From Salipiger thiooxidans (lineage in GTDB: Bacteria > Pseudomonadota > Alphaproteobacteria > Rhodobacterales > Rhodobacteraceae), in assembly GCF_900102075.1 (NCBI RefSeq), contig NZ_FNAV01000002.1, positions 186,001 to 250,000 of the forward strand: 64,000 nt of DNA. The letters run 5' to 3'. A program made the translations under genes and the position numbers. The stretch's first letter is position 1; every line of letters begins with the position of its first letter. Under the pieces are notes generated by a model, which had not been told where the DNA came from, ran no database searches, and worked only from the letters and a program-made list of their open reading frames with translations. Shown here one piece after another: positions 4,915 to 29,610 of this stretch.

Positions 4915-5787
4915 ATGAAATCCTCCGACGATCTTGCCGCGCGGCTGCGCAATTCGGCGGTGTCCACCGCCGAGCGCAAGCTTGCCGCGGCCTTTGCCGA
5001 GAACTTTCCCGGCAGCGCGCTGGGAACCGTCGAATCGCTGGCGACCCGCGCCGGGGTGAGCGGGCCGACCGTGCTGCGCTACCTCGCCAAGCTCGGGTTC
5101 CCGCGCTTCGCAGACTTCCAGGACGCGGTGAAGGCTGAGATCGACCGCCAGCTCGGCTCGCCCCTGCAGCAGATCGACCGCGCAAAGGACGGCGGCGCCG
5201 AGCACCATCTCTATCGCCGCGCGCTGCTGATGCAGGCCGAGAGCCTGCGCCGTGCCGCCGACCAGGCGGTGCCGGCCGAGTTCGACGCCATCGCCGAGCT
5301 GCTGTCGGACAGCCGCCTGCACGTGCGGCCCCTTGGCGGGCGCTACAGCCGCATCCTCGCGCAGCGGCTGGCGATGCAGCTCTCGCAGCTGCGCCCCGAC
5401 GTGACGCTGCTCGATATGCAGCTGGGCTTTGCCTACGACACGCTGGTGGATCTTGGCCCGCGCGACCTCGTGGTGATCTTCGACTACCGCCGCTACCAGG
5501 AAGAGCTGCTCTCCTTCGCCGAGGGTGCGCGGGCGGCGGGGGCGCGCATCGTGCTGCTGACCGATCCGTGGCGCTCGCCCATCGCGCAGCTGGCCGAGGC
5601 GGTGCTGACCGCGCCCGACGAGACGCTGTCGCCCTTCGGCTCACGGGTGGTGCCCACCGCGCAGGTCGAGGCGCTGGTGGCCGCGGTGGCCGACCGCAAC
5701 CGCGAGGCGGCCCGGGCGCGGCTGGCGCGGATCGAGACGTTGCGCAGCGAGGGCGCCAAGCGCACGGACGGAGACACGCATGACTGA
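4915..5787 (+). CDS. MurR/RpiR-family transcriptional regulator
   Basis: This 290-residue protein has an N-terminal HTH_6 domain (about residues 5-80, including GVSGPTVLRYLAKLGFPRFADF) followed by a SIS sugar-phosphate isomerase-type domain (about 125-265). Such regulators bind sugar phosphates or other phosphorylated or small ligands. The start was set at the ATG at 4915, because upstream in-frame codons would run through the AT-rich promoter. It overlaps the next gene by 8 bases, so it probably regulates its own operon and the divergent DppA-like gene. Confidence 0.9.
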   Translation: MKSSDDLAARLRNSAVSTAERKLAAAFAENFPGSALGTVESLATRAGVSGPTVLRYLAKLGFPRFADFQDAVKAEIDRQLGSPLQQIDRAKDGGAEHHLYRRALLMQAESLRRAADQAVPAEFDAIAELLSDSRLHVRPLGGRYSRILAQRLAMQLSQLRPDVTLLDMQLGFAYDTLVDLGPRDLVVIFDYRRYQEELLSFAEGARAAGARIVLLTDPWRSPIAQLAEAVLTAPDETLSPFGSRVVPTAQVEALVAAVADRNREAARARLARIETLRSEGAKRTDGDTHD

Positions 5788-6523
5788 ATACCCGGTGATC
5801 CTGAACCCCGAGGGCCGCTTCCCCGGGCTCATCGTCGTGGACCACGCCGGCATCGCGACGCCTGACCGCTTCGGCGCGCTGGGGCTCGAGGAGCACTGGC
5901 ACGCGACGCACCATTTCTGCGACCTCGGCGTCGAGCCTCTGGCGCGCGCGCTGGCCGACCGGCTCGACGCGCCGGTGGTGCTTGGGACAGTGAGCCGGCT
6001 GGTGCTGGACCTCAACCGCTGGCTCGAGGATCCGCGCTCGATCGCGGTGCAGGTCGAAGGCACGCCGATCCCCGGCAACCGCACGCTCACGCCCGAGGCC
6101 CGCGCGCTGCGGCAGGAGGCGATCTTCTGGCCCTACCACGAGGCGGTGGGTGTGCTCTGGGCCCGCGTCACGGCGCGCCATGCCGACCCGGTGTTCCTTG
6201 CCCTGCACAGCTGCACCCGCGTCTTCGACGGCATCCGCCGGCCGTGGGACGCGGGCACGATCTGGAACGAGAACCCTGCGCTCTCAAGGCCACTGCTCGA
6301 GGCCCTCGGGCGCGATGCCGGATTGAGGCTGGGGGACAACCAGCCCTACTCCGGGCGCGGCGGTATCTACACCGTGGACCGCCATACGCATGGCAGCGGG
6401 CTCCGGGCCTGCGGCATCGAAATCAGCAACGATTTGCTCGAGACACCGCGTGACACCGCCGGCTGGGCGGCGCGCCTGGCGGCGGCACTCGAAACCTGTG
6501 TCGGCGAAAGGGAACGCGCATGA
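5780..6523 (+). CDS. N-formylglutamate amidohydrolase-family hydrolase
   Basis: This 247-residue zinc amidohydrolase-like protein has the family blocks in order: DHAG at 21-24 (usually SxPHxG), DLNR at 77-80, HSCT at 143-146, NQPYSG at 187-192 and EISNDL at 214-219. The family removes N-formyl groups, as in the last step of the HutF histidine route, and related members act on other N-acyl amino acids. There are no other hut genes here. It is coupled to a FAD oxidoreductase by an ATGA overlap, which suggests amide hydrolysis followed by amine oxidation. The exact substrate is unknown. Confidence 0.85.
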   Translation: MTEYPVILNPEGRFPGLIVVDHAGIATPDRFGALGLEEHWHATHHFCDLGVEPLARALADRLDAPVVLGTVSRLVLDLNRWLEDPRSIAVQVEGTPIPGNRTLTPEARALRQEAIFWPYHEAVGVLWARVTARHADPVFLALHSCTRVFDGIRRPWDAGTIWNENPALSRPLLEALGRDAGLRLGDNQPYSGRGGIYTVDRHTHGSGLRACGIEISNDLLETPRDTAGWAARLAAALETCVGERERA

Positions 6524-7788
6524 CCGAAATCAACAAGACACCCTACGCCCATGACGCGCCCCCGCCCCCGCCGACGCGGCCACTCGAGGGGCTCTACACC
6601 GCCGACGTGACGCTGGTGGGCGCGGGCTTCAGCGGCACCATCGCCGCGCTGGAACTGGCGCGGCGCGGGCTGTCGGTGGCGCTGCTGGAAGCGGGCGAGA
6701 TCGGCCGAGGCGGCTCGGGCCGCAACCATGGCCAGTGCATTCCGGTGTTCAACTACCTCGACCCCGCCGAGCTGCCGCCCGCGGGCTTTGCCCTGCTGCG
6801 CGACTCCGGCCGCATGGTCTTCGACATGATCGAGGAGCTGGGGATCGACTGCGCGCCCGTGCAGAAGGGCTGGCTCAACGCCGCGCACAGCCCCGCGGGC
6901 CTTGCCCGTGCCCAGGCCGCGCACGCCAAGTACGCAGCCTATGGCAAGGCCGACCGCTTCCTCGATCCCGCCGAGGTCGAGGAGCTGAGCGGCATCCCCG
7001 GCTATCTCGGCGGCTGGGTGCACCGCGACGGCGGCCACCTGAACCCGCTGGCCTACGTCCGCGGGCTCGCCTCGGCCGCGAAGGAGGCGGGCGTCCGGAT
7101 CTTCACTCAAACGCCGCTCATCGGCATCACCCGGAGCGCGCAGGGCCGCTGGCTGCTGCGCACCCCGCATGGCGAGATCACCAGCCGCAAGGTCGGGCTG
7201 ACCACCAACGCCTATGGCACGCAGGTCATTCCCGCCCGGCTGCGCAAGAGCATCGTGCCGATCACCTCCTACGCGGTCGCCAGCGAGCGGCTGACAAAGG
7301 CGCAGCGCGCGGCGGTGCTGCCCTCGGGTGTGAACTTCTCGGACACCCGGCGCGACCCGATGTTCTTCCGCGTCGACACCGAGGGCCGGATCATCACCGG
7401 CGGGCTGGTCGAACCCCGGCGCGGTCGCCTGACCGAGCACACCTTCGAGGGCTTCACCAAGCGGCTCACGGACCTCTACCCGGTGCTCGAGGGCCTGCAG
7501 TGGACGCACCACTGGTCCGGCACCGTCGGAATCTCCGCCCGCCAGCGCCCGGCGATCTTCGAGCTCGAGGACGGGCTCTGGGGGCTCGTGGGCTACTCCG
7601 GGCGCGGCGTGCCGACCTCGGCGGCGCTCGGGCGCGCCTTCGCCGAGACGCTTCGGGATCCCGACGAGGGCGCAAAGCTCTGGCCCTCCGAGTCGCCCGC
7701 GCGCATTGTTGCCGGGCGCGCTATCGGACTTGCGGTGCAGGGCTTCCGCGGCACCATCAACAAGGTGCGCGACCGGCTCGAGAGCTGA
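6520..7788 (+). CDS. FAD-dependent oxidoreductase, DAO/PuuB-like
   Basis: This 422-residue protein has a dinucleotide-binding motif GAGFSG at 34-39 and an acidic end LLEAGE about 20 residues later. It also has the motif GGSGRNHGQ and a C-terminal block LVGYSGRGVPTS. These are features of D-amino-acid-oxidase-fold amine oxidases such as gamma-glutamylputrescine oxidase. It would oxidise a primary or secondary amine, giving an aldehyde or keto product plus ammonia or an amine. The start overlaps the previous stop (ATGA at 6520-6523), so the two are translated together. It converges with the aminotransferase gene, leaving a 7-base gap. Confidence 0.88.
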   Translation: MTEINKTPYAHDAPPPPPTRPLEGLYTADVTLVGAGFSGTIAALELARRGLSVALLEAGEIGRGGSGRNHGQCIPVFNYLDPAELPPAGFALLRDSGRMVFDMIEELGIDCAPVQKGWLNAAHSPAGLARAQAAHAKYAAYGKADRFLDPAEVEELSGIPGYLGGWVHRDGGHLNPLAYVRGLASAAKEAGVRIFTQTPLIGITRSAQGRWLLRTPHGEITSRKVGLTTNAYGTQVIPARLRKSIVPITSYAVASERLTKAQRAAVLPSGVNFSDTRRDPMFFRVDTEGRIITGGLVEPRRGRLTEHTFEGFTKRLTDLYPVLEGLQWTHHWSGTVGISARQRPAIFELEDGLWGLVGYSGRGVPTSAALGRAFAETLRDPDEGAKLWPSESPARIVAGRAIGLAVQGFRGTINKVRDRLES

Positions 7789-7795
7789 GCCCCGC

Positions 7796-9133
7796 TCAGC
7801 GCGCGAGCGGTACGCAGACCTCAGCCAGCGCGGTCAGGAACGCCGCCGCATCGTCGCGGTTGAAGCAGAGCGGCGGCCGCACCTTCAGCACGTTGCCGAA
7901 GGGCCCCGTCGCGCCGACCATGACGCCGCGCTCGCGCAGCCCGTTGATGACGGCGCGGGCGGCGGCGCCATCGGGCTCGCGGGTGCCGGGACGGCTGATC
8001 TCGACCCCTAGGAACAGCCCCGCGCCGCGCACATCGCCGATCACCGAGCCCTCGCCACAAAGCCCGCGCACGCCCTCGCGCAGATGCGCGCCCATGGCGC
8101 TGGCATTGGCGAGCAGCCCTTCGCCCTTGAGCGTGTCGAGCACCGCAAGCCCCGCGGCAGCCGCCAGAGGATTGCCGCCGAAGGTGTTGAAATAGCCGGC
8201 ATTCCGCGCGCAGAAGGCGGTCAGGATCTCGGGCCGCGTCACCGCGCCCGACATCGGAAAGCCGTTGCCCATGGGCTTGCCCATCGTGACGATGTCGGGC
8301 GTCACGCCGTGGGCGCCGAAGCCCCACATCGACTGTCCGGTGCGCCCGAAGCCAGGCTGCACCTCGTCCGCGATGAAAAGCCCCCCGGCCGCCTGCACCG
8401 CCTCGACCGCCGGCACGAGCAGCCCCTCGGGCGCCGCGTAGACGCCGTCGCTCGAAAAGATCGTGTCGATGATCAGCGCCGAGATCCCGAAGCCCGCGCG
8501 CCCGAGATCGTCAATCGCCGCCTGCACTGCCGCACCGAAGCTGGCGCCCGGATCGGCGTCACCGCTGCGGAAGGCCTCGGGCGGCGGCACCGTCCGCACG
8601 TGCGCGGGCACCGAGCGGTCGGCGCGAGACCCGGGCGAGATCGCCGTCGTAGAGCTCGAGTTGCCGTGATAGGCGAGCTCGGTCACGATGACGCCGCGCC
8701 GGCCGGTGAAGGCCTCGGCCATGCGCAGGGCAAGGTCGTTACTCTCGGAGCCGGTGCAGGTCAGCACCACGTTGTCGAGCCCCGCCGGAAACTCGGCCAG
8801 CAGCCGCTCGGCGTAGTCGTGCACGATGTCCACGAGGTAGCGTGTGTTAGTGTTGAGGATGCCCGCCTGCCGCGCGATGGCCTCGGCCACGGCGGGGTGC
8901 GAATGGCCGATGCAGGGCACGTTGTTGTAGAGGTCGAGGTACCCCCGCCCGTCGACGTCGTACATCCACGCACCGCTTGCCCGCGCCATGTGGATGGGCC
9001 GGTCGTAGAACAGCACCGAGGCGGCGCCGAAGCTGGCGCGGCGGCGGGCCAGCGCCGCGGCGAGGCCGGGATCCTCGACCACGGCCGTCTCGTCGAAGCG
9101 GTTCAGGTCTATGACTTCGCTGATCTCTGACAT
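7796..9133 (-). CDS. Class III PLP-dependent enzyme, phospho-lyase-like (AGXT2L/PHYKPL type)
   Basis: This 445-residue protein is of class III aminotransferase fold. The PLP lysine is Lys286 in TMGKPMGNGFP, the aspartate that binds the PLP nitrogen is Asp256 in DEVQPGFGRTG, and GSESNDLALR lies at 128-137. The GKPMGNG form of the lysine motif is typical of the subgroup that holds ethanolamine-phosphate and 5-phosphohydroxylysine phospho-lyases, which release phosphate and ammonia rather than transaminate. The gene directly upstream encodes a hydroxylysine-kinase-like protein, only 5 bases away, as expected for a kinase/phospho-lyase pair. The family call is firm. The phospho-lyase reaction is inferred, and an ordinary omega-transaminase is the alternative. 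Confidence 0.85.
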   Translation of the reverse strand: MSEISEVIDLNRFDETAVVEDPGLAAALARRRASFGAASVLFYDRPIHMARASGAWMYDVDGRGYLDLYNNVPCIGHSHPAVAEAIARQAGILNTNTRYLVDIVHDYAERLLAEFPAGLDNVVLTCTGSESNDLALRMAEAFTGRRGVIVTELAYHGNSSSTTAISPGSRADRSVPAHVRTVPPPEAFRSGDADPGASFGAAVQAAIDDLGRAGFGISALIIDTIFSSDGVYAAPEGLLVPAVEAVQAAGGLFIADEVQPGFGRTGQSMWGFGAHGVTPDIVTMGKPMGNGFPMSGAVTRPEILTAFCARNAGYFNTFGGNPLAAAAGLAVLDTLKGEGLLANASAMGAHLREGVRGLCGEGSVIGDVRGAGLFLGVEISRPGTREPDGAAARAVINGLRERGVMVGATGPFGNVLKVRPPLCFNRDDAAAFLTALAEVCVPLAR

Positions 9134-9138
9134 CTGTC

Positions 9139-10122
9139 CTATCCGTGTTCCGAAAGGTAGCGTTCCGCCAGTTCCACCGTGCCCACGGTGAACCCGGTCC
9201 CGGCGCTCTGGCCGAGAGGCGTTTCCGAGTGGCCGGCAGCCCAGGCGGTAAGCTGGATACGCCGCAGCAGCACCAGCGCGGGCAGGATCGCCTCGTCCTC
9301 GGGCGCGACGGGCGCGACGCCGCGGTATCCCTCGAGCCAGCTCGCCTGAAGCGCGCCGAGCCGCGGGTCGCATTCCAGCCCGCTGACGGAGGCGGCGAAA
9401 TCGAACATGAACCAGCCCATGCCGCAGTCGTCGAAGTCGATGACGCCGAGCCTTGTGCCCTCGGCCAGCAGGTTGGCGGGTTTCATGTCGGCATGGATGA
9501 GCCCCCAGCGCGCGGCGTCGCGGCCATAGGCATCGGTGCGCTCGCGCAGGTGCGCCACGGCGCGTTCCAGCACTGCCCGCCCCTCGGGCCCGAGGCCGAT
9601 GCCACAGCGCCAGTCGCCCCAGTCGGCGTCCGGGCCGATGCAGCTCTCCCAGTCCCAGACCCGCCGCACGAAGCCCGCGGGCGGGCTCCAGCGCCGGGCA
9701 TGGTCGTGCAGCCGCGCGGTCATCTCGCCCAGCGTCGTGAACCACGCCACGAGGTCGCCGGTCTCGTCCGGCGGCAGGCCGGGCATGAACTCGAAGCAGG
9801 CGATCAGCATCCGCGTGCCCCCGGCGTCGAAGCGCGCGAGCGGCGCGCCATCGGCCAGAGGGATCGGCGCGGGGGTGGGCACCACGTCGCCGTCGCGCAG
9901 GGCAGCGAGCCACGCCAGCTCCGAACGGATCTCGGCTTCGGAATTGTAGCCCGGCCGCTGCACGCGCATGACGACGCGGCGCCCGGGCGGCTCCACAAGG
10001 AAGGTGGCGTTCTCGGAGACGGTCAGCAGCCGGCACGGCGTGTCGGGCGCGAGCCCCCAGAGCGGCAGCGCCTCGCGCAGCCCGCGTTCCAGTACCACAA
10101 GGAAGGCATCGTCGTAGAGCAT
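9139..10122 (-). CDS. APH-family small-molecule kinase, hydroxylysine-kinase-like
   Basis: This 327-residue protein of the aminoglycoside phosphotransferase/choline kinase fold has the catalytic loop GLIHADMKPANLL near residues 207-218 (H-x-D-x(4)-N). The metal-binding VIDFDD follows near 226-231. N-terminal ENATFLV replaces the usual nucleotide-binding loop. Family members phosphorylate hydroxyls of amino alcohols such as choline, ethanolamine, homoserine or 5-hydroxylysine. It sits between the transporter ATPase (3-base gap) and the class III PLP enzyme (5-base gap), so it very likely makes the phospho-substrate that the PLP enzyme cleaves. Antibiotic resistance is unlikely in this context. 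Confidence 0.85.
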   Translation of the reverse strand: MLYDDAFLVVLERGLREALPLWGLAPDTPCRLLTVSENATFLVEPPGRRVVMRVQRPGYNSEAEIRSELAWLAALRDGDVVPTPAPIPLADGAPLARFDAGGTRMLIACFEFMPGLPPDETGDLVAWFTTLGEMTARLHDHARRWSPPAGFVRRVWDWESCIGPDADWGDWRCGIGLGPEGRAVLERAVAHLRERTDAYGRDAARWGLIHADMKPANLLAEGTRLGVIDFDDCGMGWFMFDFAASVSGLECDPRLGALQASWLEGYRGVAPVAPEDEAILPALVLLRRIQLTAWAAGHSETPLGQSAGTGFTVGTVELAERYLSEHG

Positions 10123-10125
10123 CGT

Positions 10126-11238
10126 TCAGCGCGCGATCTTGCGGGTGGTCTCGGGATCGAAGAGGTGCATCCGCAGGCTGTCCGCAAAGAGCCGGATCTG
10201 CCGCGCCACCTCCCAGTCGCCCTCGGCGGGAAGGCGGGCGGCCAGCTCGGACCCGCCCTGCCCCAGCTTGACGTTGAGGATGGTCTCGGGGCCAAGCGCC
10301 TCGACGGTCTCGATGCTGCAGTCGATGGCGGCGGGGGCGGCCCCCTCGGGTGTCTCGAAGAGATCCTCGGGGCGGATGCCAAGGATCACCTCGCGCCCGG
10401 TATAGGGCGCATAGGCCGCGCGGTAGGCCTCGGGCACCGGCACCGAGAGCCCGGGCGCGATGACCGCGAGCCCCTCGCCCGCCGCCTCGATCCGCGCCGG
10501 GATCAGGTTCATCGGCGGGGTGGCGAGGAAGCCCGCCACGAAGGTGTCCGCCGGGTCGCGGTAGACGTCCTGCGGCTTGCCCACCTGCACGATCTCGCCG
10601 CCGCGCATGATGCAGATGCGGGTGCCCATGGTCATCGCCTCGACCTGGTCATGGGTGACGTGGATCATCGTGGTCCCGAGCTTGCGGTGCAGCTTGATGA
10701 GCTCGGTGCGCATCACCGAGCGCAGCTTGGCGTCGAGGTTCGACAGCGGCTCGTCGAGCAGGAAGGCGCGCGGCTCGCGCACCAGCGCCCGGCCCAGCGC
10801 CACCCGCTGACGCTGCCCGCCAGAGAGCTGCGAGGGCTTGCGGTCGAGCAGCGGGCGGATGCCCAGCGTCTCGGCCACGCCCGCGATGCGGCTCTCGATT
10901 TCCGGCCCCGGCGTGCCGCGCAGCTTGAGCCCGAAGGCCATGTTCTGGCGCACCGACATGTGCGGATAGAGCGCGTAGTTCTGGAACACGATGGCGAGGT
11001 CGCGCTCGGCCGGGTCCACGTCGTTGACGCGCTGCCCGTCGATCAGCAGGTCGCCCTGCGACACCGGCTCGAGCCCCGCGATCATGCGCAGCGTGGTGGA
11101 CTTACCGCAGCCCGAGGGGCCGAGGAAGATCATGAACTCGCCGTCCTCGATCTGCAGGTCGATGCCCTTGACCGCGTGCACGGCGGAGGCGCCCTGCCCG
11201 TAGATGCGCGAGACGGAGTTGAGTTGGATGGATGCCAT
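10126..11238 (-). CDS. CUT1-type ABC transporter ATPase, MalK/UgpC-like
   Basis: This 370-residue protein has an N-terminal ATPase domain (Walker A GPSGCGKST at 40-48, signature LSGGQRQRVALGRA, Walker B FLLDEPLSNLD, switch histidine in MIHVTHDQ). It also has a C-terminal TOBE/OB regulatory domain from about residue 240. This is the full length for MalK/UgpC proteins that power sugar, glycerol-phosphate and polyol importers. It belongs to the operon that runs from 14350 down to 7796. The substrate class is carbohydrate-like by family; the linked kinase and PLP enzyme suggest an amino-hydroxyl compound. Confidence 0.93.
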   Translation of the reverse strand: MASIQLNSVSRIYGQGASAVHAVKGIDLQIEDGEFMIFLGPSGCGKSTTLRMIAGLEPVSQGDLLIDGQRVNDVDPAERDLAIVFQNYALYPHMSVRQNMAFGLKLRGTPGPEIESRIAGVAETLGIRPLLDRKPSQLSGGQRQRVALGRALVREPRAFLLDEPLSNLDAKLRSVMRTELIKLHRKLGTTMIHVTHDQVEAMTMGTRICIMRGGEIVQVGKPQDVYRDPADTFVAGFLATPPMNLIPARIEAAGEGLAVIAPGLSVPVPEAYRAAYAPYTGREVILGIRPEDLFETPEGAAPAAIDCSIETVEALGPETILNVKLGQGGSELAARLPAEGDWEVARQIRLFADSLRMHLFDPETTRKIAR

Positions 11239-11244
11239 TGCGTC

Positions 11245-12132
11245 TTAGTCCTGAACCTGGCGCATCGAGCGCCACAGCACCGCCGTCAGCCCCGCGATCA
11301 CGATGAGAAGCATGGCCGCCATGGCGCAGGCCTCGCCCAGATCGAGGCTCACGAAGGCGCGCCGGTAGATGAAGTAGCTGATGAGATCGGTGGCGACCCC
11401 GGGGCCGCCGCGGGTCATGATGTAGATGATGTCATAGGTCTTGATGGCAAAGATCATGCGGATGAGCAGCGTCACCACGATCACCGGCTTCATCATCGGC
11501 AGGGTGATGTGCCAGAAGCGCTGGAAGGGTGTGGCCCCGTCGACCCGCGCCGCCTCGTAGGGCTCGGCGGGAAGCGCGCTGAGACCGGCGAGCAGGAGGA
11601 CCACCATGAACGAGACCTGGTGCCAGATGTCGACCAGAACCACGGTCCAGAACGCCATGTCGGGGGCGCCCAGCCAGTTGACCGGCTCGATCCCCACGGT
11701 GCCCAGAAGCCAGTTCACGATGCCGAGCGTCGGGTGCAGGATCATCCGCCACATGAGCCCCACCACCACCGGGTTGATGAGCAGCGGGCAGAGCAGGATG
11801 AGGTAGTAGACCGTCTTGCCCCGCCTCGCGTCGTTCAGCATCAGCGCCACGACGAAGCCCGCGACGAACTGGATGCCAACCACCGCCACCACGAAGAGCA
11901 GCGTGATCCAGGCGGAATGCAGGAACTCGCCGTCATCGGCGGCCTTGGCGTAATTCCCGAGGCCGGCGAAATCGTCGTAGCCCGGGAAGATCAGCGAGTA
12001 GTTGAAGAAGGAGGTGATCCCGGCCCAGACGATCGGGAACAGGACCACCGCCGCAAGAAGGACGAGACCCGGCGCCGTCAGCAGCCAGCCGAAGCGCCGG
12101 TTCTCTCTTTCCATGGTCGTCACATGCGCCAT
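11245..12132 (-). CDS. CUT1-type ABC transporter permease, MalF/UgpA-like
   Basis: This 295-residue inner-membrane protein has about six membrane segments and the conserved cytoplasmic EAA loop (PYEAARVDGATPFQRFWHIT, about residues 200-219) that contacts the ATPase. The first membrane helix is close to residue 15 (LTAPGLVLLAAVVLFPI). Gaps of 6 and 9 bases to its neighbours show operon membership. It is paired with the MalG-like permease at 13487-14350. Confidence 0.92.
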   Translation of the reverse strand: MAHVTTMERENRRFGWLLTAPGLVLLAAVVLFPIVWAGITSFFNYSLIFPGYDDFAGLGNYAKAADDGEFLHSAWITLLFVVAVVGIQFVAGFVVALMLNDARRGKTVYYLILLCPLLINPVVVGLMWRMILHPTLGIVNWLLGTVGIEPVNWLGAPDMAFWTVVLVDIWHQVSFMVVLLLAGLSALPAEPYEAARVDGATPFQRFWHITLPMMKPVIVVTLLIRMIFAIKTYDIIYIMTRGGPGVATDLISYFIYRRAFVSLDLGEACAMAAMLLIVIAGLTAVLWRSMRQVQD

Positions 12133-12141
12133 GAGGCGGGG

Positions 12142-13419
12142 TTACTCCTGACGGCCGTCTTTGATGGCGAGCTCGTCGAACTCGGCGGCGGCGGCGTCGA
12201 GCGCCTCCTGCGCCGATTTCTCGCCCGAGACCGCCAGCGACAGCTCGCGGCCCAGCACCTCGACGAACTGAGGCGTGTAGGTGAAGGTCGGGAAGTTATG
12301 CGAGCCCAGCAGCAGCTCCTTGAGCGCGGTGGTCTGCGGGTACTTGGCGATCACCTCGGCGTCGTCGAACACGTCGAGCCGGGTGGCCGAGCCGCCGAGC
12401 AGCGCGCGTTTCTTCGCGATCTCGGGGCTTTCGACCCACTTCAGGAATTCCCAGGCCGCGTCGGGGTTGGGAGAGGATTTCGGGATCGCCCAGCCCCACG
12501 CGCCGTTGAGAGAGCCGCCCTCTTCCGGCGTCTGGCCGGGGACGCCCATGATCTCGCCCTTGCCGACGATGGCCGAGCCCGAGGCATCGTCAACGGCAGC
12601 CCGGAAGAAGTTGTAGGTGATGTAGCTGTAGGCCTGGCCCTGGCTGAAGACGTTGAACGCCTCGTCGAACGAGAAGCTGGCCGCGCCCACCGGACCGTAG
12701 TCGTTGAGGTTGGTGATGTAATCCTCGAGCGCCGCCACACCCTCGGGCGAGTTGAAGGTGGCGTGCCAGCCGTCGTCGATGAACTCGCCGCCCTTGGCGA
12801 AGAGGTAGTTCGACCATTCCATCGCGATGGGATCGGGGCGCAGGCCCTGGTTCACCACGCCGTAGGAGCCGTCCTTGGTGAAGAACTTCACCTGCTGCAG
12901 GTACTCGTCCCAGGTCTCGGGCTTCTTCAGCTCGGTGCCGAAAGCGTCCATGTAGGCGGTCTTGTTGGCCTCGTCCTCGAGCAGGTCGGTGCGGTAGAGC
13001 AGCCCCATGGCGTAGTTGTAGAAGGGCAGCATGTAGGTGGTGCCCTCGACCTGCCCCACGAGGTCCATCATCGCGGGCACGTAGACCGAGGTGTCGAAAC
13101 CGTCAGCGGCGATGCGGTCGTCCAGCGGCTGCATCCAGCCCGCCTTGAAGAACTCGCCCACCCAGTAGAAGTCGACCACGATGGCCGAGTAGCTGCCCGA
13201 GTTCGACACCAGCTGCGGCACCAGCTTGGTGTGCATCTCGGCGTAGTTGACCACCTCGAGGTTCACGTCGATGCCGGTGGCCTCCTCGAACTCGGGCAGG
13301 AGCTGCTGGATGTAGGTGGTGTCCGGCACCGCCTCCATCAGGATGTTGACCGTCTCGGCGTGGGCCGCCACGGCGGTCAGCGCCAGCGCGCTGAGCGATG
13401 AGAGCATGTATTTCTTCAT
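12142..13419 (-). CDS. CUT1-type extracellular solute-binding protein
   Basis: This 425-residue periplasmic protein has a Sec signal peptide ending AAHA at residue 21. The mature sequence has the family 1 sugar-binding style: LPEFEEATGIDVNLEVV near the start and GAWGWAIPKSSPNPDAAWEF in the C-terminal half. It is the capture subunit of the importer. It lies 67 bases after the MalG-like permease gene and 9 bases before the MalF-like one, an unusual order (permease, binding protein, permease, ATPase). Confidence 0.92.
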   Translation of the reverse strand: MKKYMLSSLSALALTAVAAHAETVNILMEAVPDTTYIQQLLPEFEEATGIDVNLEVVNYAEMHTKLVPQLVSNSGSYSAIVVDFYWVGEFFKAGWMQPLDDRIAADGFDTSVYVPAMMDLVGQVEGTTYMLPFYNYAMGLLYRTDLLEDEANKTAYMDAFGTELKKPETWDEYLQQVKFFTKDGSYGVVNQGLRPDPIAMEWSNYLFAKGGEFIDDGWHATFNSPEGVAALEDYITNLNDYGPVGAASFSFDEAFNVFSQGQAYSYITYNFFRAAVDDASGSAIVGKGEIMGVPGQTPEEGGSLNGAWGWAIPKSSPNPDAAWEFLKWVESPEIAKKRALLGGSATRLDVFDDAEVIAKYPQTTALKELLLGSHNFPTFTYTPQFVEVLGRELSLAVSGEKSAQEALDAAAAEFDELAIKDGRQE

Positions 13420-13486: not shown

Positions 13487-14350
13487 TCACTTCAGGGCGC
13501 CGAGAGACAGCCCCTTGATGAGGTATTTCTGCAGGAACGGCAGCAGGATGAGCACCGGCGCCAGCGCCAGCAGCGTGGCCGCCGCGAGGGGGGCGATGTT
13601 GACGCCCGCGTGGGTCTCGAGCGAGGCCAGCCCCACCGCCAGCGTCTGGCTGGAATGGTTGCCAAGGATCAGCGCGTAGAGGAACTCGTTCCAGCTCAGG
13701 ATGAAGCCCAGCAGCCCCGCGGCGATGATGCCGGGCATGGCCACGGGGATAGTGACCCTGGTGAAGGCCTGCCAGCGGGTGGCGCCGTCGCAGCGCGCGG
13801 CCTCTTCGAGCGAGCGGGTGTCCTCGTCGAAGAAGGAAATCATGATCCACGCCATGAACGGCAGGTTGATGGCGACGTGGGCGATGGTGATGGCGATGAT
13901 CCCCGGCACCGGCATCAGCGTGGTGAAGACGAGGAACATCGGCAGCACCAGCACGATGGGCGGGATCATCTGGCTCGAGAGCACCATCATCATCAGCGGC
14001 CACCCCCCGGTGCGGTAACGGGCGGTGGCATAGGCCATCATCGCCGCGGCGGGGAGCGAGATCGCGGTGGCCAGCACCGCCACGAAGACCGAATTGCCGA
14101 ACCAGCGGGTGAAATCGTACTGGGTCAGAACCTCGACGAAATTGTGCAGGCCGATCTGGCCGATTTCGGGCGGCAGCCTGTAGGCGGTGAGCTTGTCGGT
14201 CAGGCTGACCCGCAGCACCCAGAGCAGCGGCAGCGCGATGCTGGCGGAGAACCCCGCCAGGATCAGGTGCCGCACCAGTCCATCGAGCCGCGCGACCTTC
14301 ATGCGAGCGACCGTCCCGGATCGCGGGTATCCCTGTGCGTCATTGTGCAT
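13487..14350 (-). CDS. CUT1-type ABC transporter permease, MalG/UgpE-like
   Basis: This 287-residue inner-membrane permease has an EAA loop (SLEEAARCDGATRWQAF) and the C-terminal block FLQKYLIKGLSLGALK that is typical of MalG/UgpE partners. It is the first gene of the minus-strand operon. The start at 14350 is preceded by TTCGGGACG; a start at 14302 (MKVARL) is an alternative with a shorter N-terminus. The divergent BtpA/SgcQ-like gene begins 205 bases away. Confidence 0.91.
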   Translation of the reverse strand: MHNDAQGYPRSGTVARMKVARLDGLVRHLILAGFSASIALPLLWVLRVSLTDKLTAYRLPPEIGQIGLHNFVEVLTQYDFTRWFGNSVFVAVLATAISLPAAAMMAYATARYRTGGWPLMMMVLSSQMIPPIVLVLPMFLVFTTLMPVPGIIAITIAHVAINLPFMAWIMISFFDEDTRSLEEAARCDGATRWQAFTRVTIPVAMPGIIAAGLLGFILSWNEFLYALILGNHSSQTLAVGLASLETHAGVNIAPLAAATLLALAPVLILLPFLQKYLIKGLSLGALK

Positions 14351-14555: not shown

Positions 14556-15353
14556 ATGACACTTGAATTCTTCGGGTCGAACCGGAAGGGCGTGATCGCC
14601 ATGGCCCATATCGGCGCCCTGCCCGGCTCGCCGCTCTACGACGCCGACGGCGGCATGGCCAAGCTCATCGACGAGGTCGCCTCGGACATCGAGAAGCTGC
14701 AGGCCGGCGGCGTGCATTGCATCATGTTCGGCAACGAGAACGACCGCCCCTACCAGCTCAAGGCCTGCCCGCAGTCGCTGGCGGCGATGACCGCGGTGGT
14801 GATGGCGGTGAAGCCGATGCTGAAGGTGCCCTTCGGCGTGAACTACCTGTGGGATCCGGTGGGCTCGGTGGCGCTTGCCAATGCCACGGGTGCGAGCTTC
14901 GCGCGAGAGATCTTCACCGGGCTCTTCGCCTCGGACATGGGCATGTGGGAACCCAACGCCGGCGAGGCGCTGCGCCTGCGCCGCAACCTCGGCTGCACCG
15001 ACCTCAAGCTGCTGTTCAACATCAACGCCGAGTTCGCCTCGTCCCTCGACAGCCGCCCCATTGAGCTGCGCGCCAAGAGCGCGGTGTTCTCGTCGCTGGC
15101 AGACGCCATCCTCGTCTCCGGGCCGCTCACCGGCCAGTCGGCCGAGACCTCGGACCTGTGCAAGGTCCGCGAGGCGGTGCCCGACACCCCGCTGCTGGCC
15201 AACACCGGCGTGCGCATCGACAACGTGCAAGAGATCATGTCGATCGCAGACGGCTGCGTCATCGGCACTCATTTCAAGGTCGACGGCAACACCTGGAACA
15301 AGGTTGACGCGGACCGGGTCAAGCGTTTCATGGACGTGGTCGACAGCCTGTAA
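14556..15353 (+). CDS. BtpA/SgcQ-family TIM-barrel protein
   Basis: This 265-residue protein of the BtpA/SgcQ family begins MTLEFFGSNRKGVIAMAHIG. It has conserved blocks GVHCIMFGNENDRPY, PFGVNYLWDP, DAILVSGPLTG and LLANTGVRIDN that mark a TIM-barrel enzyme. BtpA was named for photosystem I biogenesis in cyanobacteria. Heterotroph homologues (SgcQ) sit in sugar operons, and their reaction is unknown to me. The start at 14556 follows AAAGGCGAG. It is followed 9 bases later by an FGGY kinase, so it probably handles a phosphorylated product in the same pathway. Confidence 0.85.
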   Translation: MTLEFFGSNRKGVIAMAHIGALPGSPLYDADGGMAKLIDEVASDIEKLQAGGVHCIMFGNENDRPYQLKACPQSLAAMTAVVMAVKPMLKVPFGVNYLWDPVGSVALANATGASFAREIFTGLFASDMGMWEPNAGEALRLRRNLGCTDLKLLFNINAEFASSLDSRPIELRAKSAVFSSLADAILVSGPLTGQSAETSDLCKVREAVPDTPLLANTGVRIDNVQEIMSIADGCVIGTHFKVDGNTWNKVDADRVKRFMDVVDSL

Positions 15354-15362
15354 GGGGCCATA

Positions 15363-16874
15363 ATGCAAGACGATTACGTCATCGGGCTGGACATCGGCAC
15401 CACCAGCACCATCGCCGCGCTTGTGGCCGTGCCGGCGCGGGTCACCGCCACCGCAAGCCGGCCCGTGACGCTCTCGTCACCGCACTACGGCTGGGCCGAG
15501 GAAGACCCCGAGGAGTGGTGGGCCAACGCCTGCGAGGTGCTGGCCGAGGTCATGCAGGCCCTGCCCAAAGGCGCCCGCCTGCGCGGCATCTGCGTCACCG
15601 GGATGCTGCCCGCGGTGGTGCTGCTCGACGCCGACGGCCAGCTGCTCCGCCCCTCGATCCAGCAGAGCGACGGGCGCTGCGGCGCCGAGGTGCAGGCGCT
15701 TGCCGCCGAGGTGCCAGAGGCCGACTTCCTTGCCCGCACCGGCAACGGCATCAACCAGCAACTGGTGGCCGCGAAGCTGCGCTGGATCGAGACCCACGAG
15801 CCCGAGGTCTTTGCCCGCATCGCCACGGTCTTCGGTTCTTACGACTTCATAAACCTGCGCCTCACCGGTCATCGCGGGGTCGAGCACAACTGGGCGCTCG
15901 AGGCCGGATTCATCGACCTCGCCGACCACGCCATCGCCGGGGATCTCGTGGCTCTGGCGCATCTGCCGCCCGGGGCGATCCCGCCGAAACACGCCTCGCA
16001 CGACGTCATCGGCGCGGTCACTGCCGGGGCCGCCGCGGCGACCGGCCTGCCCGAGGGTCTGCCGGTCTTCGGCGGGGCTGCGGATCACATCGCCTCGGCG
16101 CTGGCGGCGGGGCTCACCGCGCCCGGCGACGTGCTGCTGAAATTCGGCGGCGCGGGCGACATCATCGTGATCTCTGACGCGGTGCGTGCCGACCCGCGGC
16201 TGTTCCTCGATTACCACCTCGTACCCGGGCTCTACGCGCCCAACGGCTGCATGGCGGCAACCGGTTCGGCGCTCAACTGGTTCTCGGGCCTGCTGATCCC
16301 CGAGCCCGGCCCCGAACCCGACGCGGAAAAGCCCCACCGCACGCTCGACCGGCTCGCGGGTGCGGTGCCACCGGGCAGTGACGGGCTGCTCTGCCTGCCC
16401 TATCTTCTCGGCGAGAAGACCCCGATCCACGACCCGCTCGCCCGTGGCACCTTCACCGGGCTCGGGCTCAACCACACGCGCGGCCATCTCTGGCGGGCGC
16501 TGCTCGAATCCGTGGCCTATGCCTTCCGCCACCACCTCGAGGTGCTCGAGGAGATCGGCCACCACCCGCGCCGGCTGTTTGCCTCGGACGGCGGCAGCGC
16601 CAGCCGGGTCTGGATGCAGATCATGGCCGACGTGGCCGGGCGGCCGGTGCAGGTGCTGGGCAATGCCCACGGCTCCTGCGCGGGCGCGGCCTGGGTGGCG
16701 GCGGTGGCCGCTGGCACCGCCGACTGGGCCGAGATCACCACGCTCGTGGCCTATGGCGAGCTGTTCGAACCCGACCCCGTCGCAAAGGCCGTACACGACG
16801 CAGGCTACCGCGATTTCCGGGCGCTCTACGAGGCGCTGAAGCCGTTCTTCCACCGCGAGGCATCGCCCGCCTGA
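15363..16874 (+). CDS. FGGY-family carbohydrate kinase, xylulokinase-like
   Basis: This 503-residue sugar/polyol kinase has the N-terminal phosphate loop GLDIGTTSTIAAL (8-20), the central GGAADHIASALAAG that carries the likely catalytic aspartate (about residue 240), and the C-terminal ATP-binding FASDGGSASRVWMQ. It would phosphorylate a ketose or polyol with ATP in the cytoplasm. It is co-transcribed with the BtpA-like gene and followed by a DeoR gene, whose family usually senses sugar phosphates. The substrate cannot be assigned. Confidence 0.9.
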   Translation: MQDDYVIGLDIGTTSTIAALVAVPARVTATASRPVTLSSPHYGWAEEDPEEWWANACEVLAEVMQALPKGARLRGICVTGMLPAVVLLDADGQLLRPSIQQSDGRCGAEVQALAAEVPEADFLARTGNGINQQLVAAKLRWIETHEPEVFARIATVFGSYDFINLRLTGHRGVEHNWALEAGFIDLADHAIAGDLVALAHLPPGAIPPKHASHDVIGAVTAGAAAATGLPEGLPVFGGAADHIASALAAGLTAPGDVLLKFGGAGDIIVISDAVRADPRLFLDYHLVPGLYAPNGCMAATGSALNWFSGLLIPEPGPEPDAEKPHRTLDRLAGAVPPGSDGLLCLPYLLGEKTPIHDPLARGTFTGLGLNHTRGHLWRALLESVAYAFRHHLEVLEEIGHHPRRLFASDGGSASRVWMQIMADVAGRPVQVLGNAHGSCAGAAWVAAVAAGTADWAEITTLVAYGELFEPDPVAKAVHDAGYRDFRALYEALKPFFHREASPA

Positions 16875-16912
16875 CCCGGCGCCAGGGGGCCGCTTGTGCC
16901 TTTCAATGTTGC

Positions 16913-16926
16913 TTTCTGTTTGTATT
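16913..16926 (+). promoter_or_regulatory. Candidate DeoR operator, copy 2 (deoR promoter)
   Basis: TTTCTGTTTGTATT lies 67 bases before the DeoR start and matches 12 of 14 bases of the site at 14422-14435. A repeated CTTTC (16900-16904 and 16912-16916) precedes it. It suggests autoregulation of the DeoR gene and common control with the ABC and BtpA/FGGY units. Confidence 0.5.
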
Positions 16927-16992
16927 GATCCGACTATGACCGGACCGGGTCGTGGGCCGCACCTTATGACCTGAGGAAGGGACCAGCACAGC

Positions 16993-17793
16993 ATGAGCAC
17001 CGCCACATCGAAGGGGCCCGGCAGGCTGATCGGGCGCGTCCGCAAGGACCGCATCTCGCAGATGGTGCGCGACAACGGCTTCATGTCCTCCGCCGATCTG
17101 GCCGAGACCTTCAAGGTCTCCGAGATGACCGTGCGCCGCGATCTCGCGGAGCTCGAGGAACGCGGCGACCTGCGGCGCACCCATGGCGGCGCCATCGCCT
17201 CGGAGCCCGAGGCCGAGACCCGCATCGCCGAGCCCTTCTTCGACGAGCGCCTCCGGCGCAATGCCGAGGCCAAGGCCCGCATCGCCCGCGCCGCCGCCCG
17301 GCTGGTGACGGCGGGCCAGATCACCGCGCTCGACGTGGGCACGACCACCTTCGAACTCGGCAAGCTGCTGGTGGCGGAGGCGCAGCAGCGCGTCTTCACC
17401 AACAACCTGCGGGTCGCGGCGCTCGACACCCGGGCCGAGGTCTACCTGCTCGGCGGGAGGCTGCGGCCCAACGAGAAATCCATGGTCGGCCCCATCGCGC
17501 TGGAACAGGCGCGCAAGCTCTGGTTCGACATCGCCTTCATCGGCGTCTCGTCGATCTCGCCGGAGGGGATCTTCGATTATTCCATCGAGGATACCGAGAT
17601 CAAACGCGTCTACATGAGCCGCGCCACCCGCAAGGTGGTGCTGGCGGACAGCTCGAAGTTCGACGAGATGGCGCTGGTGCAGATCGGCACGCTCGGCCAG
17701 TTCGACGTGCTGGTGACGGACGAGGCACCGGGCCCCGCGCTCGCGGCGGATCTTGCCGCCGCGAAGGTCAGGGTGATCGTCGCCGGGGCCTGA
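16993..17793 (+). CDS. DeoR/GlpR-family transcriptional regulator
   Basis: This 266-residue protein has an N-terminal DeoR helix-turn-helix (ADLAETFKVSEMTVRRDLAE, with the usual RRTHGGA that follows) and a DeoRC sugar-phosphate sensor domain (about residues 90-250, with DVGTTTFELGKLL). DeoR proteins usually repress sugar operons and release DNA on binding a phosphorylated intermediate. Here the likely targets are the ABC operon, the BtpA/FGGY operon and its own gene, all of which have or adjoin the shared TTTYTGTTTGTWTT site. It converges on the SDR gene (9-base gap). Confidence 0.92.
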   Translation: MSTATSKGPGRLIGRVRKDRISQMVRDNGFMSSADLAETFKVSEMTVRRDLAELEERGDLRRTHGGAIASEPEAETRIAEPFFDERLRRNAEAKARIARAAARLVTAGQITALDVGTTTFELGKLLVAEAQQRVFTNNLRVAALDTRAEVYLLGGRLRPNEKSMVGPIALEQARKLWFDIAFIGVSSISPEGIFDYSIEDTEIKRVYMSRATRKVVLADSSKFDEMALVQIGTLGQFDVLVTDEAPGPALAADLAAAKVRVIVAGA

Positions 17794-17802
17794 GCGCGCC
17801 GC

Positions 17803-18588
17803 TCAGGTGGTGTAGACACCGCCGGTCACGTTGATGCCCTGCCCGGTCATGAAGCCCGCCGCGTCCGAGGCGAGGAAGGCCACCAGCGTTGCGATGTCCT
17901 CGGGCTCTTCGAGCCGGCCCAGCGGCGTCTGGCGGACGTAGTCGGCGATGACCTCCTCGGGGGTGAGGCCGCGCAGCTCTGCCTCCCACGCCACTTCGCG
18001 CTCCTGCATGCCGGTGCGCACGAAGCCCGGGCAGACCGCGTTGACGCGAATGCCGTCCGAGGCCAGCTCGCGCGCCAGCGCCTGCGTCCAGCCCAGCACC
18101 GCGAATTTCGAGGCAGAGTAATGCGCCAGCAGCGGCGCGCCGATCTTGGCGGCGAGCGAGGCGGTGTTCACGATCACGCCCGTGCCCGCCGAAAGGAAAT
18201 GCCGCGCGGCGATTTGGTTGGTCAGGAACACGCCGCGGGTGTTGACGTCGAGGTTGAAGTCCCATTCCTCGTCGGTCAGCTCCACCGCCCGGTTCATGGT
18301 CGAGACCCCGGCGTTGGCGCAGAGGATGTCGTAGCCGCCGAAGGCTTCGGTCACCTGCGCAAAGGCGGTCTCGACGCTGTCGCGGCGGCGCACGTCGATG
18401 CCGAGCCCGATGTGGTCCGCGCCCAGCCCGGCGGCGGTCTCGCGCGCGGCGGCCTCGTCGAGGTCGGCGATGGCGACCCGGACCCCGTGCTCGGCCAGCG
18501 TCGCGCAGATCGCGGCGCCGATGCCCCTCGCGCCGCCGGTCACGATAGCGCGCTTGCCTGCGAGGTCGGTTCCGATCTTCATGGTCAT
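17803..18588 (-). CDS. SDR-family NAD(P)-dependent oxidoreductase
   Basis: This 261-residue short-chain dehydrogenase has the cofactor motif TGGARGIG near residue 17, NAG in ILCANAGVS, and the catalytic YSASK. The C-terminus FMTGQGINVTGGVYTT is typical of sugar or polyol dehydrogenases such as sorbitol and ribitol types. Its ATG overlaps the stop codon of the HAD gene (18585-18588), so the two are translationally coupled. Together with the HAD hydrolase it may oxidise a dephosphorylated polyol. The specific substrate is unknown. Confidence 0.9.
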   Translation of the reverse strand: MTMKIGTDLAGKRAIVTGGARGIGAAICATLAEHGVRVAIADLDEAAARETAAGLGADHIGLGIDVRRRDSVETAFAQVTEAFGGYDILCANAGVSTMNRAVELTDEEWDFNLDVNTRGVFLTNQIAARHFLSAGTGVIVNTASLAAKIGAPLLAHYSASKFAVLGWTQALARELASDGIRVNAVCPGFVRTGMQEREVAWEAELRGLTPEEVIADYVRQTPLGRLEEPEDIATLVAFLASDAAGFMTGQGINVTGGVYTT

Positions 18589-19289
18589 TGCTCCTTGGTC
18601 AGATCGCCCGGCCGCGGCAGGGCATCGGGCGCGGTGACGCCCAGAATGGGGGTGATGAGTTCGTCGAGCCGCGCCACGGTCAGCTCGGCGCCGGGCACAA
18701 CGAGATGCTCGGTCGCGATGCCGAAGACCCGCAGCCCGGCGGCGCTGGCCGAGATGGCGCCGGTTTCACTGTCCTCGACGGCCGCGACCTGGGCGGGCGC
18801 GAGACCGAGGCGCGAGGCCGCCATGGCGTAGGGCGCCGGGTGAGGCTTGCCGTGGGGCACGTCGTCGTAGCTGACGGAGAACGCGATGTCGCCGGCGATG
18901 CCGAGGGCCGCGATATTGGCGTCGACGATGCGGCGGACCGAGTTCGAGACGCAGACCATGCGGACCCCTGCCCCGCGCGCCGCCGCCAGCAGCTCTTCCA
19001 TGCCCGCCAGCGGCCGCAGCTCTCCGGCACGGGCGCAGTAGCGCGCGACGATGAGGTCGGTCCAGCGCTGGTGCGACAGGTCCGCAGGCCGGCGCGGTTC
19101 CAGCGCGGTCCAGACGTCGGCGAGATGCACGCCGCGGAAGCGATCGTCGTCGAGGCCGCTCAGGTCGACCCCGGTCTCGGCGCAGACCTCGTTCAGCACG
19201 TCGAGGTGCAGCGGCTCGCTGTCGACCAGCGTCCCGTCAATGTCAAAGGCGATGGCCGCGATGGTGGCGGCCCCGGACGGTACGGTCAT
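18585..19289 (-). CDS. HAD-superfamily hydrolase, beta-phosphoglucomutase/phosphatase-like
   Basis: This 234-residue HAD protein has motif I FDIDGTLVDSEPLH near residue 12, motif II CVSNS, motif III GKPHPAPY and motif IV VEDSETG. The fold is that of small sugar phosphatases and beta-phosphoglucomutases. The start was set at MTVPSGAATIAAIAFDIDG (19289), because upstream in-frame codons are not conserved in style and lie in the promoter gap. It heads a two-gene operon with the SDR. Confidence 0.88.
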   Translation of the reverse strand: MTVPSGAATIAAIAFDIDGTLVDSEPLHLDVLNEVCAETGVDLSGLDDDRFRGVHLADVWTALEPRRPADLSHQRWTDLIVARYCARAGELRPLAGMEELLAAARGAGVRMVCVSNSVRRIVDANIAALGIAGDIAFSVSYDDVPHGKPHPAPYAMAASRLGLAPAQVAAVEDSETGAISASAAGLRVFGIATEHLVVPGAELTVARLDELITPILGVTAPDALPRPGDLTKEQ

Positions 19290-19492
19290 GAAGGCTCCGC
19301 TGGTTTCGTGCGACCCTAACCAAGATTCGAACAGTTGCAAACATTTTAGCACACTGGCTTTGCCCTGGGCACGCGCCCTGGCCACCGGCGCAGGTATCGC
19401 AGCCATAGGCAGGCGCTATTTGTGAGCGGACCGCCCTCGTGCTTGTCTTGGCCCGACAGCCTCGCGCCCCTTTCACAGCCAAGGACCGACCG

Positions 19493-28052: not shown

Positions 28053-28093
28053 CACCGCATTCCTATCCCCTCGTGACAGACGGAAGGTCCGCC

Positions 28094-28951: not shown

Positions 28952-29610
28952 CGCTGGCCGCGCTGGATCGGGAAACGCTGGGTTACGGGCGCGCCGCGGT
29001 GCTGCCCGGGCTCAGCTTCGCGCTCGCTCCCGGCGAGCGCGTCGTGCTTCTGGGCCGCAGCGGCGTGGGCAAGACAACGCTGCTCAACGCCATGCACGAC
29101 CGGCTGGCGCGCGACCACCGCACGGCGCTCGTGCCGCAGGACCATGCGCTGGTGCCGCAGCTTTCGGTGCTCAAGAACGTGCTGATGGGCCGGCTCGACG
29201 ATCACGGCGCGCTCTACAACCTCACCAACCTGCTGCACGTCCGCCGCGCCGACCGAGCGGGCGTGGTCGACGTGCTGACGCCGCTGGGGCTCGCCGAGCT
29301 TGCCGACCGCCCGGTGCGGGCGCTCTCGGGCGGACAGAAACAGCGCGTGGCGCTGGGGCGCGCGTGGTGGCGCGGCGGCGCGGTGCTGATCGGCGACGAG
29401 CCGGTCTCGGCCGTGGACGAGACCCATGCCGAGGCGCTGCTCGGCCAGATGCGCGACCGCTTCCCCACGGCGCTGCTGGCGCTGCACGACGTGGCGCTGG
29501 CCCGGAGCTTCGCCACGCGACTGGTGGGGCTGCGCCGCGGCGGCATCCTCTTCGACGCGCCGGCGACGGAGGTGAGCGATGGCGACATCGCGGCTCTCTA
29601 CGCCCACTGA
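28948..29610 (+). CDS. ABC transporter ATPase, PhnC-like (short)
   Basis: This 220-residue ATPase has Walker A GRSGVGKTT near residue 37, signature LSGGQKQRVALGRA and Walker B VLIGDEPVSAVD, then the switch histidine LALHDV. It is about 40-50 residues shorter than typical PhnC proteins, mainly around the helical insert. ATGA overlap with the binding-protein gene, and a 32-base overlap with the permease gene, show tight coupling. Confidence 0.88.
   Translation: MTLAALDRETLGYGRAAVLPGLSFALAPGERVVLLGRSGVGKTTLLNAMHDRLARDHRTALVPQDHALVPQLSVLKNVLMGRLDDHGALYNLTNLLHVRRADRAGVVDVLTPLGLAELADRPVRALSGGQKQRVALGRAWWRGGAVLIGDEPVSAVDETHAEALLGQMRDRFPTALLALHDVALARSFATRLVGLRRGGILFDAPATEVSDGDIAALYAH

What the first reader, a model, noticed from the sequence alone, without database searches (positions are those of the whole stretch)
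7796..10122. Kinase and PLP phospho-lyase pair joined to a sugar-type ABC importer
An APH-fold kinase (HADMKPANLL catalytic loop) and a class III PLP enzyme (GKPMGNG lysine motif) are adjacent, 5 bases apart. In animals, hydroxylysine kinase and 5-phosphohydroxylysine phospho-lyase, and the related ethanolamine-phosphate phospho-lyase, use these two families in sequence: phosphorylate an amino alcohol, then eliminate phosphate and ammonia to give an aldehyde. Here the pair ends an operon with a CUT1 importer that normally takes sugars or polyols. A phosphorylate-then-eliminate route for an imported amino-polyol or amino-alcohol would be new to me.
Basis: partly seen in the sequence, partly recalled or inferred. 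Interest (0 to 1): 0.72.

Follow-up and report, generated by a model that had tools for sequence, protein, structure and literature searches.

The report
Amino-alcohol kinase and phospho-lyase gene pair
Two adjacent genes probably break down an amino alcohol by first adding a phosphate and then removing phosphate and ammonia together, a route already known in animals and bacteria, here attached to a sugar-type uptake system whose cargo is still unknown.

Summary
In detail: an APH-fold kinase (9139-10122, -) and a class III PLP enzyme (7796-9133, -), 5 nt apart, end a tight CUT1-importer operon. By sequence the PLP enzyme is a phospho-lyase: its best solved relatives are bacterial phospholyase 5g4i and human ETNPPL, it falls in their clade (100/100) apart from transaminases, and it carries their signature residues. 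The kinase groups (94/95) with 6ef6, recalled as the mycobacterial aminopropanol kinase. The pairing is ordinary: 51 of 52 phospho-lyase genes in my loci had a homologous kinase nearby, the 52nd a choline/ethanolamine-type kinase; 0 of 10 other class III genes examined in this genome did. So phosphorylate-then-eliminate is supported, but it is a known bacterial kind. Unusual is the company: a sugar/polyol-type operon (SDR, FGGY kinase, BtpA, DeoR, HAD, CUT1) that occurs without the pair in other bacteria and with it in only one other genus found (Mangrovicoccus). An Agrobacterium plasmid joins a related importer to a pair of another lineage. The substrate, and whether the importer carries it, remain open. 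The same genome has a second pair in a likely aminoacetone/aminopropanol operon.

The parts
7796..9133 (-). PLP-dependent class III enzyme of the phospho-lyase clade (445 aa, Lys286)
9139..10122 (-). APH-fold amino-alcohol kinase (327 aa, HADMKPANLL)
10126..11238 (-). CUT1 ABC importer ATPase (UgpC/MalK type)
11245..12132 (-). CUT1 importer permease (UgpA type)
12142..13419 (-). CUT1 solute-binding protein
13487..14350 (-). CUT1 importer permease (MalG type)
14556..15353 (+). BtpA/SgcQ-family TIM-barrel protein, divergent from the importer
15363..16874 (+). FGGY carbohydrate kinase (xylulokinase-like; closest solved 3ifr)
16993..17793 (+). DeoR-family regulator
17803..18588 (-). SDR dehydrogenase (closest solved 3ak4, quinuclidinone reductase)
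18585..19406 (-). HAD phosphatase, overlaps the SDR by 4 nt

Best explanation
The pair is a two-step amino-alcohol pathway. Step 1 (inferred): the APH-fold kinase transfers phosphate from ATP to the hydroxyl of a vicinal amino alcohol. Step 2 (inferred, with strong family evidence): the PLP enzyme binds the amine as an external aldimine in place of Lys286 and eliminates phosphate; hydrolysis of the enamine/imine gives an aldehyde (or ketone), ammonia and phosphate. No transamination partner is needed. I put about 0.85 on this reaction type, about 0.5 on a small substrate (1-amino-2-propanol, ethanolamine or a near analogue) and about 0.3 on a hydroxylated amino-polyol. The pair has been joined to the 3' end of a CUT1 importer operon whose own core (SDR, FGGY kinase, BtpA barrel, HAD, DeoR) most likely oxidises, phosphorylates and cleaves or epimerises a polyol or ketose (inferred from families only). 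Co-regulation with that operon is inferred from the 3- and 5-nt gaps.
For: Best PDB relatives of the PLP enzyme: 5g4i phospholyase (2e-109) and 6tor human ethanolamine-phosphate phospho-lyase (7.5e-97), then dialkylglycine decarboxylase (5.5e-57) and GABA transaminases (7.7e-54 or weaker). Tree of 63 rows: the window enzyme sits in a 55-row clade (100/100) with both reference phospho-lyases, apart from the 6 own-genome class III enzymes and the decarboxylase. Signature N70, N71, R98, W270 and P287 are in 56 of 56 clade rows, K417 and R419 in 55 of 56; the window enzyme has them all; each is in at most 1 of 8 outgroup rows. Kinase: best PDB hit 6ef6 (2.9e-77), in one 19-row group with it, 94/95, not starred. 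Pairing: 51 of 52 phospho-lyase loci have the homologous kinase within 1.8 kb, 48 of 52 within 220 nt on the same strand; the exception L046 has a PF01633 choline/ethanolamine kinase next to it. Control: 0 of 10 other class III loci examined in this genome, of 11 known. One relative lies beside an annotated ethanolamine permease (L086). The cluster's genes are kept in Mangrovicoccus, with SDR and HAD moved a few kb away.
Against: No substrate is shown for either enzyme. The aminoacetone-reductase-type SDR found in 11 of 14 sister-clade loci is missing from the window (best match 38%) and from the Mangrovicoccus stretches L078 and L123 (best 38%), so the aminopropanol route cannot simply be carried over. 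The pairing count used 40 of the 127 matches, mostly the best-scoring, plus 12 other loci; six of the 52 (L086-L091) were fetched by kinase similarity, which biases those six; without them it is 45 of 46. A kinase of this family in Tsukamurella is paired instead with a decarboxylase-like PLP enzyme, so kinase and phospho-lyase are not inseparable. PMC6620236 (passages) reads the microcompartment PLP gene as an aminotransferase and its phosphotransferase as acting on lactyl-CoA.
Confidence: 0.68

Rival explanations
1. Imported amino-polyol pathway: the CUT1 importer brings in an amino-deoxy polyol or amino-polyol conjugate; kinase and phospho-lyase convert it to a deoxy-aldehyde or ketone that then enters the SDR/FGGY/BtpA part.
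For: Pair is the last two genes of the importer operon with 3- and 5-nt gaps, kept in Mangrovicoccus. An Agrobacterium cucumeris plasmid joins an importer of the same family (SBP 45%, permeases 42-44%, ATPase 44% identical) to a pair of another lineage, with a diol dehydratase and an SDR.
Against: Core importer plus SDR, BtpA, FGGY and DeoR occurs without a neighbouring pair in four g372 genomes with a 72-73% identical binding protein, and in Thermus, Salipiger and Labrenzia. g372 genomes do carry unlinked PLP relatives (best 50-52%) and kinase relatives (42-44%), so this is not a clean test.
Confidence: 0.25
2. Cytosolic aminoacetone/1-amino-2-propanol catabolism, as in the own-genome paralogous operon: the pair is a duplicate that handles the same substrate under another regulator.
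For: Sister clade of 14 rows (tree); 11 of 14 loci carry an SDR like that of L038, whose best PDB match is 6ci8/6ci9 (5.4e-93; recalled as the mycobacterial aminopropanol dehydrogenase), and 7 of 14 L038's type of PotF-like binding protein.
Against: That SDR and that binding protein are missing from the window and from the Mangrovicoccus stretches; kinase only 47% and PLP 57% identical to the own paralog.
Confidence: 0.3
3. The PLP enzyme is an ordinary omega-transaminase and the kinase acts on an unrelated sugar or drug.
For: No NCBIfam equivalog is reached: the 25 best of 69 matches shown for the PLP enzyme, and all 4 for the kinase, are below cut-off; Pfam names are generic.
Against: Clade, signature residues and near-constant kinase pairing all point to phospho-lyase.
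Confidence: 0.06

Closest known systems
Ethanolamine-phosphate phospho-lyase (bacterial 5g4i, recalled as A1RDF1 of Arthrobacter aurescens; human ETNPPL 6tor)
   Same: Same clade (100/100), same signature residues; 44% and 42% identical over 408 aligned columns
   Different: Different subclade; substrate untested here
(S)-1-amino-2-propanol kinase of the aminoacetone-utilisation (RMM) microcompartment, Mycobacterium smegmatis (6ef6 by recall; the papers seen only as reference lines in PMC8007038)
   Same: 6ef6 is the best solved relative of the kinase (2.9e-77) and grouped with it at 94/95, short of the tree's star threshold
   Different: CUT1 importer instead of a permease; no PF00936 shell gene found in the window's genome (the control rang in 2 of 14 genomes)
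Human hydroxylysine kinase and 5-phosphohydroxylysine phospho-lyase (recalled; Veiga-da-Cunha 2012 seen only as a reference line)
   Same: Same two superfamilies used in sequence (recalled)
   Different: Hydroxylysine enzymes were not compared by sequence here
PbfA, (R)-1-hydroxy-2-aminoethylphosphonate ammonia-lyase
   Same: Class III PLP lyase (PMC8154272, passages)
   Different: Window enzyme scores 183.9 bits against a cut-off of 525
CUT1 sugar/polyol importer systems (UgpC ATPase, SDR, FGGY kinase)
   Same: Importer type and core genes
   Different: An amino-alcohol kinase/phospho-lyase pair is appended

Membership tests
PLP phospho-lyase (ETNPPL/A1RDF1 type) | Falls in the clade of characterised phospho-lyases, outside transaminases | tested here: met
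   55-row clade 100/100; some outgroup branches are flagged as long
PLP phospho-lyase (ETNPPL/A1RDF1 type) | Clade signature residues present | tested here: met
   N70, N71, R98, W270, P287 (56/56), K417, R419 (55/56)
PLP phospho-lyase (ETNPPL/A1RDF1 type) | Releases phosphate from an O-phospho amino alcohol | not testable with these tools
   needs enzyme assay
Amino-alcohol kinase (APH fold) | APH fold with HxDxxxxN catalytic loop | tested here: met
Amino-alcohol kinase (APH fold) | Groups with 6ef6 in a kinase tree | tested here: met
   19-row group with 6ef6, support 94/95, just short of starred; that 6ef6 is the aminopropanol kinase is recalled
Amino-alcohol kinase (APH fold) | Phosphorylates an amino alcohol | not testable with these tools
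   needs assay
Aminoacetone/aminopropanol utilisation operon | 6ci8-type SDR with the pair | tested here: not met
   best match in the window is 38%; own paralog L038 has the type
Aminoacetone-utilisation microcompartment (RMM) | BMC shell genes (PF00936) | tested here: not met
   none in the window's genome
PbfA | Reaches the curated NCBIfam cut-off | tested here: not met
   183.9 against 525 bits
CUT1 importer | UgpC-type ATPase, two MalFG-type permeases, sugar-type SBP | tested here: met
   ATPase over cut-off, permeases by best match only

The most novel reading that the evidence does not exclude
A CUT1 importer takes up an amino-deoxy polyol (or a polyol conjugate of an amino alcohol); the kinase phosphorylates it and the phospho-lyase removes phosphate and ammonia together, giving a deoxy aldehyde or ketone that enters a polyol pathway. 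Pairs of two lineages would have been joined to this importer family independently (window/Mangrovicoccus and the Agrobacterium cucumeris plasmid).
Probability: 0.2. Interest if true: 0.6.

Novelty: new variant of a known kind. Interest (0 to 1): 0.38.

Why it matters
It suggests that PLP enzymes of this clade, named aspartate or class III aminotransferases in the plasmid records read here, are probably phospho-lyases, and that an APH-fold kinase next to them is the sign: a simple rule for correcting annotation. It also gives a concrete locus for asking whether this route handles polyhydroxylated amines, and points to aminoacetone/aminopropanol operons without a microcompartment.

Tried and rejected
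Transaminase reading of the PLP enzyme: rejected on tree and signature residues. PbfA: rejected on score. The FAD oxidoreductase and N-formylglutamate amidohydrolase at 5780-7788 (+), convergent with the PLP gene: considered as partners and dropped, because in the loci no match to the amidohydrolase was kept and the only oxidoreductase match, in L078, is at 27%. Structure of the binding protein for ligand hints: model mean pLDDT 57.4, too poor, not searched. BtpA model (pLDDT 69.0) matches dihydropteroate synthase, ribulose-phosphate 3-epimerase, thiamin phosphate synthase and HisF barrels: this says only that it is a phosphate-binding-type barrel. PDB search with the paralog's PotF-type SBP gave nothing at 1e-10. 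Paper searches for BtpA/SgcQ clusters and for a natural role of quinuclidinone reductase gave nothing usable in the listings. The P0005 search of 390 order genomes found only the own genome at 1e-110. My simple ORF picker merges or misses some genes, so the neighbourhood strings were not used for counts.

Full report
What is there. On the minus strand, 14350-7796, six genes follow each other with gaps of 67, 9, 6, 3 and 5 nt: permease, binding protein, permease, ATPase, APH-fold kinase, class III PLP enzyme. Divergent from the first permease (205 nt) run BtpA 14556-15353, FGGY kinase 15363-16874 and DeoR 16993-17793; after DeoR lie, on the minus strand, HAD 19406-18585 and SDR 18588-17803. The importer is CUT1 type (ATPase UgpC model 448.8 bits, cut-off 432). 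The binding protein's best solved relatives are a trehalose/maltose binding protein (6e-44), 5iai (8.2e-34), 5ci5 and a sorbitol binding protein 4rya.

The PLP enzyme. phmmer against the PDB puts 5g4i phospholyase (2e-109) and 6tor human ethanolamine-phosphate phospho-lyase (7.5e-97) first, then dialkylglycine decarboxylase (5.5e-57) and GABA transaminases. In a 63-row tree the window enzyme is inside a 55-row clade (100/100) that holds both reference phospho-lyases; seen from the transaminase side, human ETNPPL branches first, the 13-row subclade with 5g4i next (98/96 for the 54 rows left), then the window's side of 41 rows (80/93), so the window enzyme is bracketed by phospho-lyases (several outgroup branches are flagged as long). 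Of 56 clade rows (the A. cucumeris enzyme added), all have N70, N71, R98, W270 and P287; 55 have K417, R419 and N290; the window has them all. I read R98, K417 and R419 as likely phosphate-binding, by charge only.

The kinase. Best PDB hit is 6ef6 (2.9e-77), deposited as aminoglycoside phosphotransferase; I recall it as the (S)-1-amino-2-propanol kinase of M. smegmatis. The papers of Mallette and Kimber (2018) on that kinase and on the aminopropanol dehydrogenase I saw only as reference lines. In a 55-row kinase tree the window kinase lies with 6ef6 and with the kinases of Chimaeribacter and Acinetobacter (19-row group, 94/95, not starred); the Chimaeribacter kinase is next to an annotated ethanolamine permease.

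The pair is the rule. 115 of 295 family genomes, the own one included, have a PLP relative at 1e-100. In the fetched loci, 51 of 52 phospho-lyase genes have a homologous kinase within 1.8 kb, 48 of 52 within 220 nt on the same strand, one of those fused (distances are between domain matches). Forty of the 52 were taken from the 127 matches, mostly the best-scoring; six more came from other searches with the PLP enzyme; these 46 give 45 of 46. The remaining six (L086-L091) were fetched by the kinase and are biased. The one exception, L046, has a PF01633/APH kinase directly beside it. As control, 10 of the 11 other class III genes of this genome were examined: none has such a kinase within 1.5 kb, while both phospho-lyase genes do.

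Two pairs in one genome. The own-genome paralog (L038; PLP 57%, kinase 47%) lies in the sister clade. Of the 14 sister rows, L038 included, 11 loci carry L038's type of SDR (59-90% in the other ten) and 7 its type of PotF-like binding protein; L046, L048 and L088 have neither. L038's SDR is closest to 6ci8/6ci9 (5.4e-93), recalled as the mycobacterial aminopropanol dehydrogenase. This looks like an aminoacetone/1-amino-2-propanol operon; no PF00936 shell gene was found in this genome, while the control search rang in E. coli and Synechococcus, so here it would work without a microcompartment.

The window's operon is different. Its SDR is closest to 3ak4, quinuclidinone reductase (2.6e-110), and only 38% identical to L038's SDR; no closer match to L038's SDR lies in the window or in the Mangrovicoccus stretches. 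Its FGGY kinase is closest to 3ifr (6e-219). The same core (DeoR, SDR, importer, BtpA, FGGY) occurs without a neighbouring pair in four genomes of genus g372 (SBP 72-73%), Thermus (L161), Salipiger (L160) and Labrenzia (L162), and the SDR/DeoR/BtpA/FGGY part with another importer in Rhizobium (L159). Core plus pair was found only here and in Mangrovicoccus, where SDR and HAD lie about 7-11 kb beyond DeoR and an aldehyde dehydrogenase and a PALP enzyme lie between FGGY and DeoR. The HAD also follows FGGY in Salipiger, Labrenzia and Rhizobium sp. ACO-34A. Thus the pair is an addition to what looks like a polyol/ketose-type system. FGGY (48-49% to g372 against 77% to Mangrovicoccus) and DeoR (47-49% against 74%) diverge most; I draw no conclusion from that.

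A second joining. In A. cucumeris pO132a one run holds permB, SBP (45%), permA, diol dehydratase, ATPase, SDR, kinase and PLP enzyme. The PLP enzyme is closest to that of L061 (69%), outside the window's subclade, and the kinase gave no BLAST hit to the window kinase at 1e-5 and lies on the other side of the kinase tree. So importers of this family have met such pairs at least twice. That favours a functional link, and is the main support for the novel case; two cases are few.

Mechanism. Inferred: ATP-dependent phosphorylation of the hydroxyl, then PLP-dependent elimination of phosphate and loss of ammonia, giving an aldehyde or ketone. The aldehyde dehydrogenase beside the Mangrovicoccus cluster would fit an aldehyde product but is one case. 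Substrate unknown.

Literature limits. Passages only were read of PMC8154272, PMC6620236, PMC8007038 and PMC6787980. PMC6620236 reads the microcompartment PLP enzyme as an aminotransferase, which goes against a phospho-lyase step there. Early work on ethanolamine/aminopropanol phosphate lyases in Erwinia and Pseudomonas is recalled. I make no claim that the CUT1+pair cluster is unpublished; the listings of my ten paper searches did not show it, and none of them asked for exactly that.

Noticed in passing
L038:7926-16259 (own genome C35); L081, L090, L039, L041, L042, L054: Operons of kinase, phospho-lyase, PotF-type importer, a 6ci8-like SDR and a DeoR regulator (no DeoR match found in L042): candidate aminoacetone/aminopropanol catabolism; no shell gene in the own genome, not searched in the others.
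   Followed up: partly
L165:9621-19870 (A. cucumeris pO132a): CUT1 importer, diol dehydratase (large and medium subunit in one frame, plus small subunit), SDR, kinase and phospho-lyase in one run.
   Followed up: partly
L085:6956-9170 (Tsukamurella plasmid): Aminopropanol-kinase-like gene paired with a PLP enzyme that groups with dialkylglycine decarboxylase, not with phospho-lyases.
   Followed up: partly
L079:2293-4722: Kinase and phospho-lyase fused in one frame in an actinobacterial MAG.
   Followed up: no
L159-L163, L098-L101, window 14556-18588: Widely conserved SDR/DeoR/BtpA/FGGY module with variable CUT1 importers; pathway not identified.
   Followed up: partly
L123:13878-16154: A dimethylformamidase beta-like (DMFA2_C) gene sits between the HAD and SDR genes in Mangrovicoccus.
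   Followed up: no
window 28073-31123: Binding protein, ATPase and permease reading frames that look like a phosphonate-type ABC importer, followed by a cytochrome P450-like frame (by eye, no family search).
   Followed up: no
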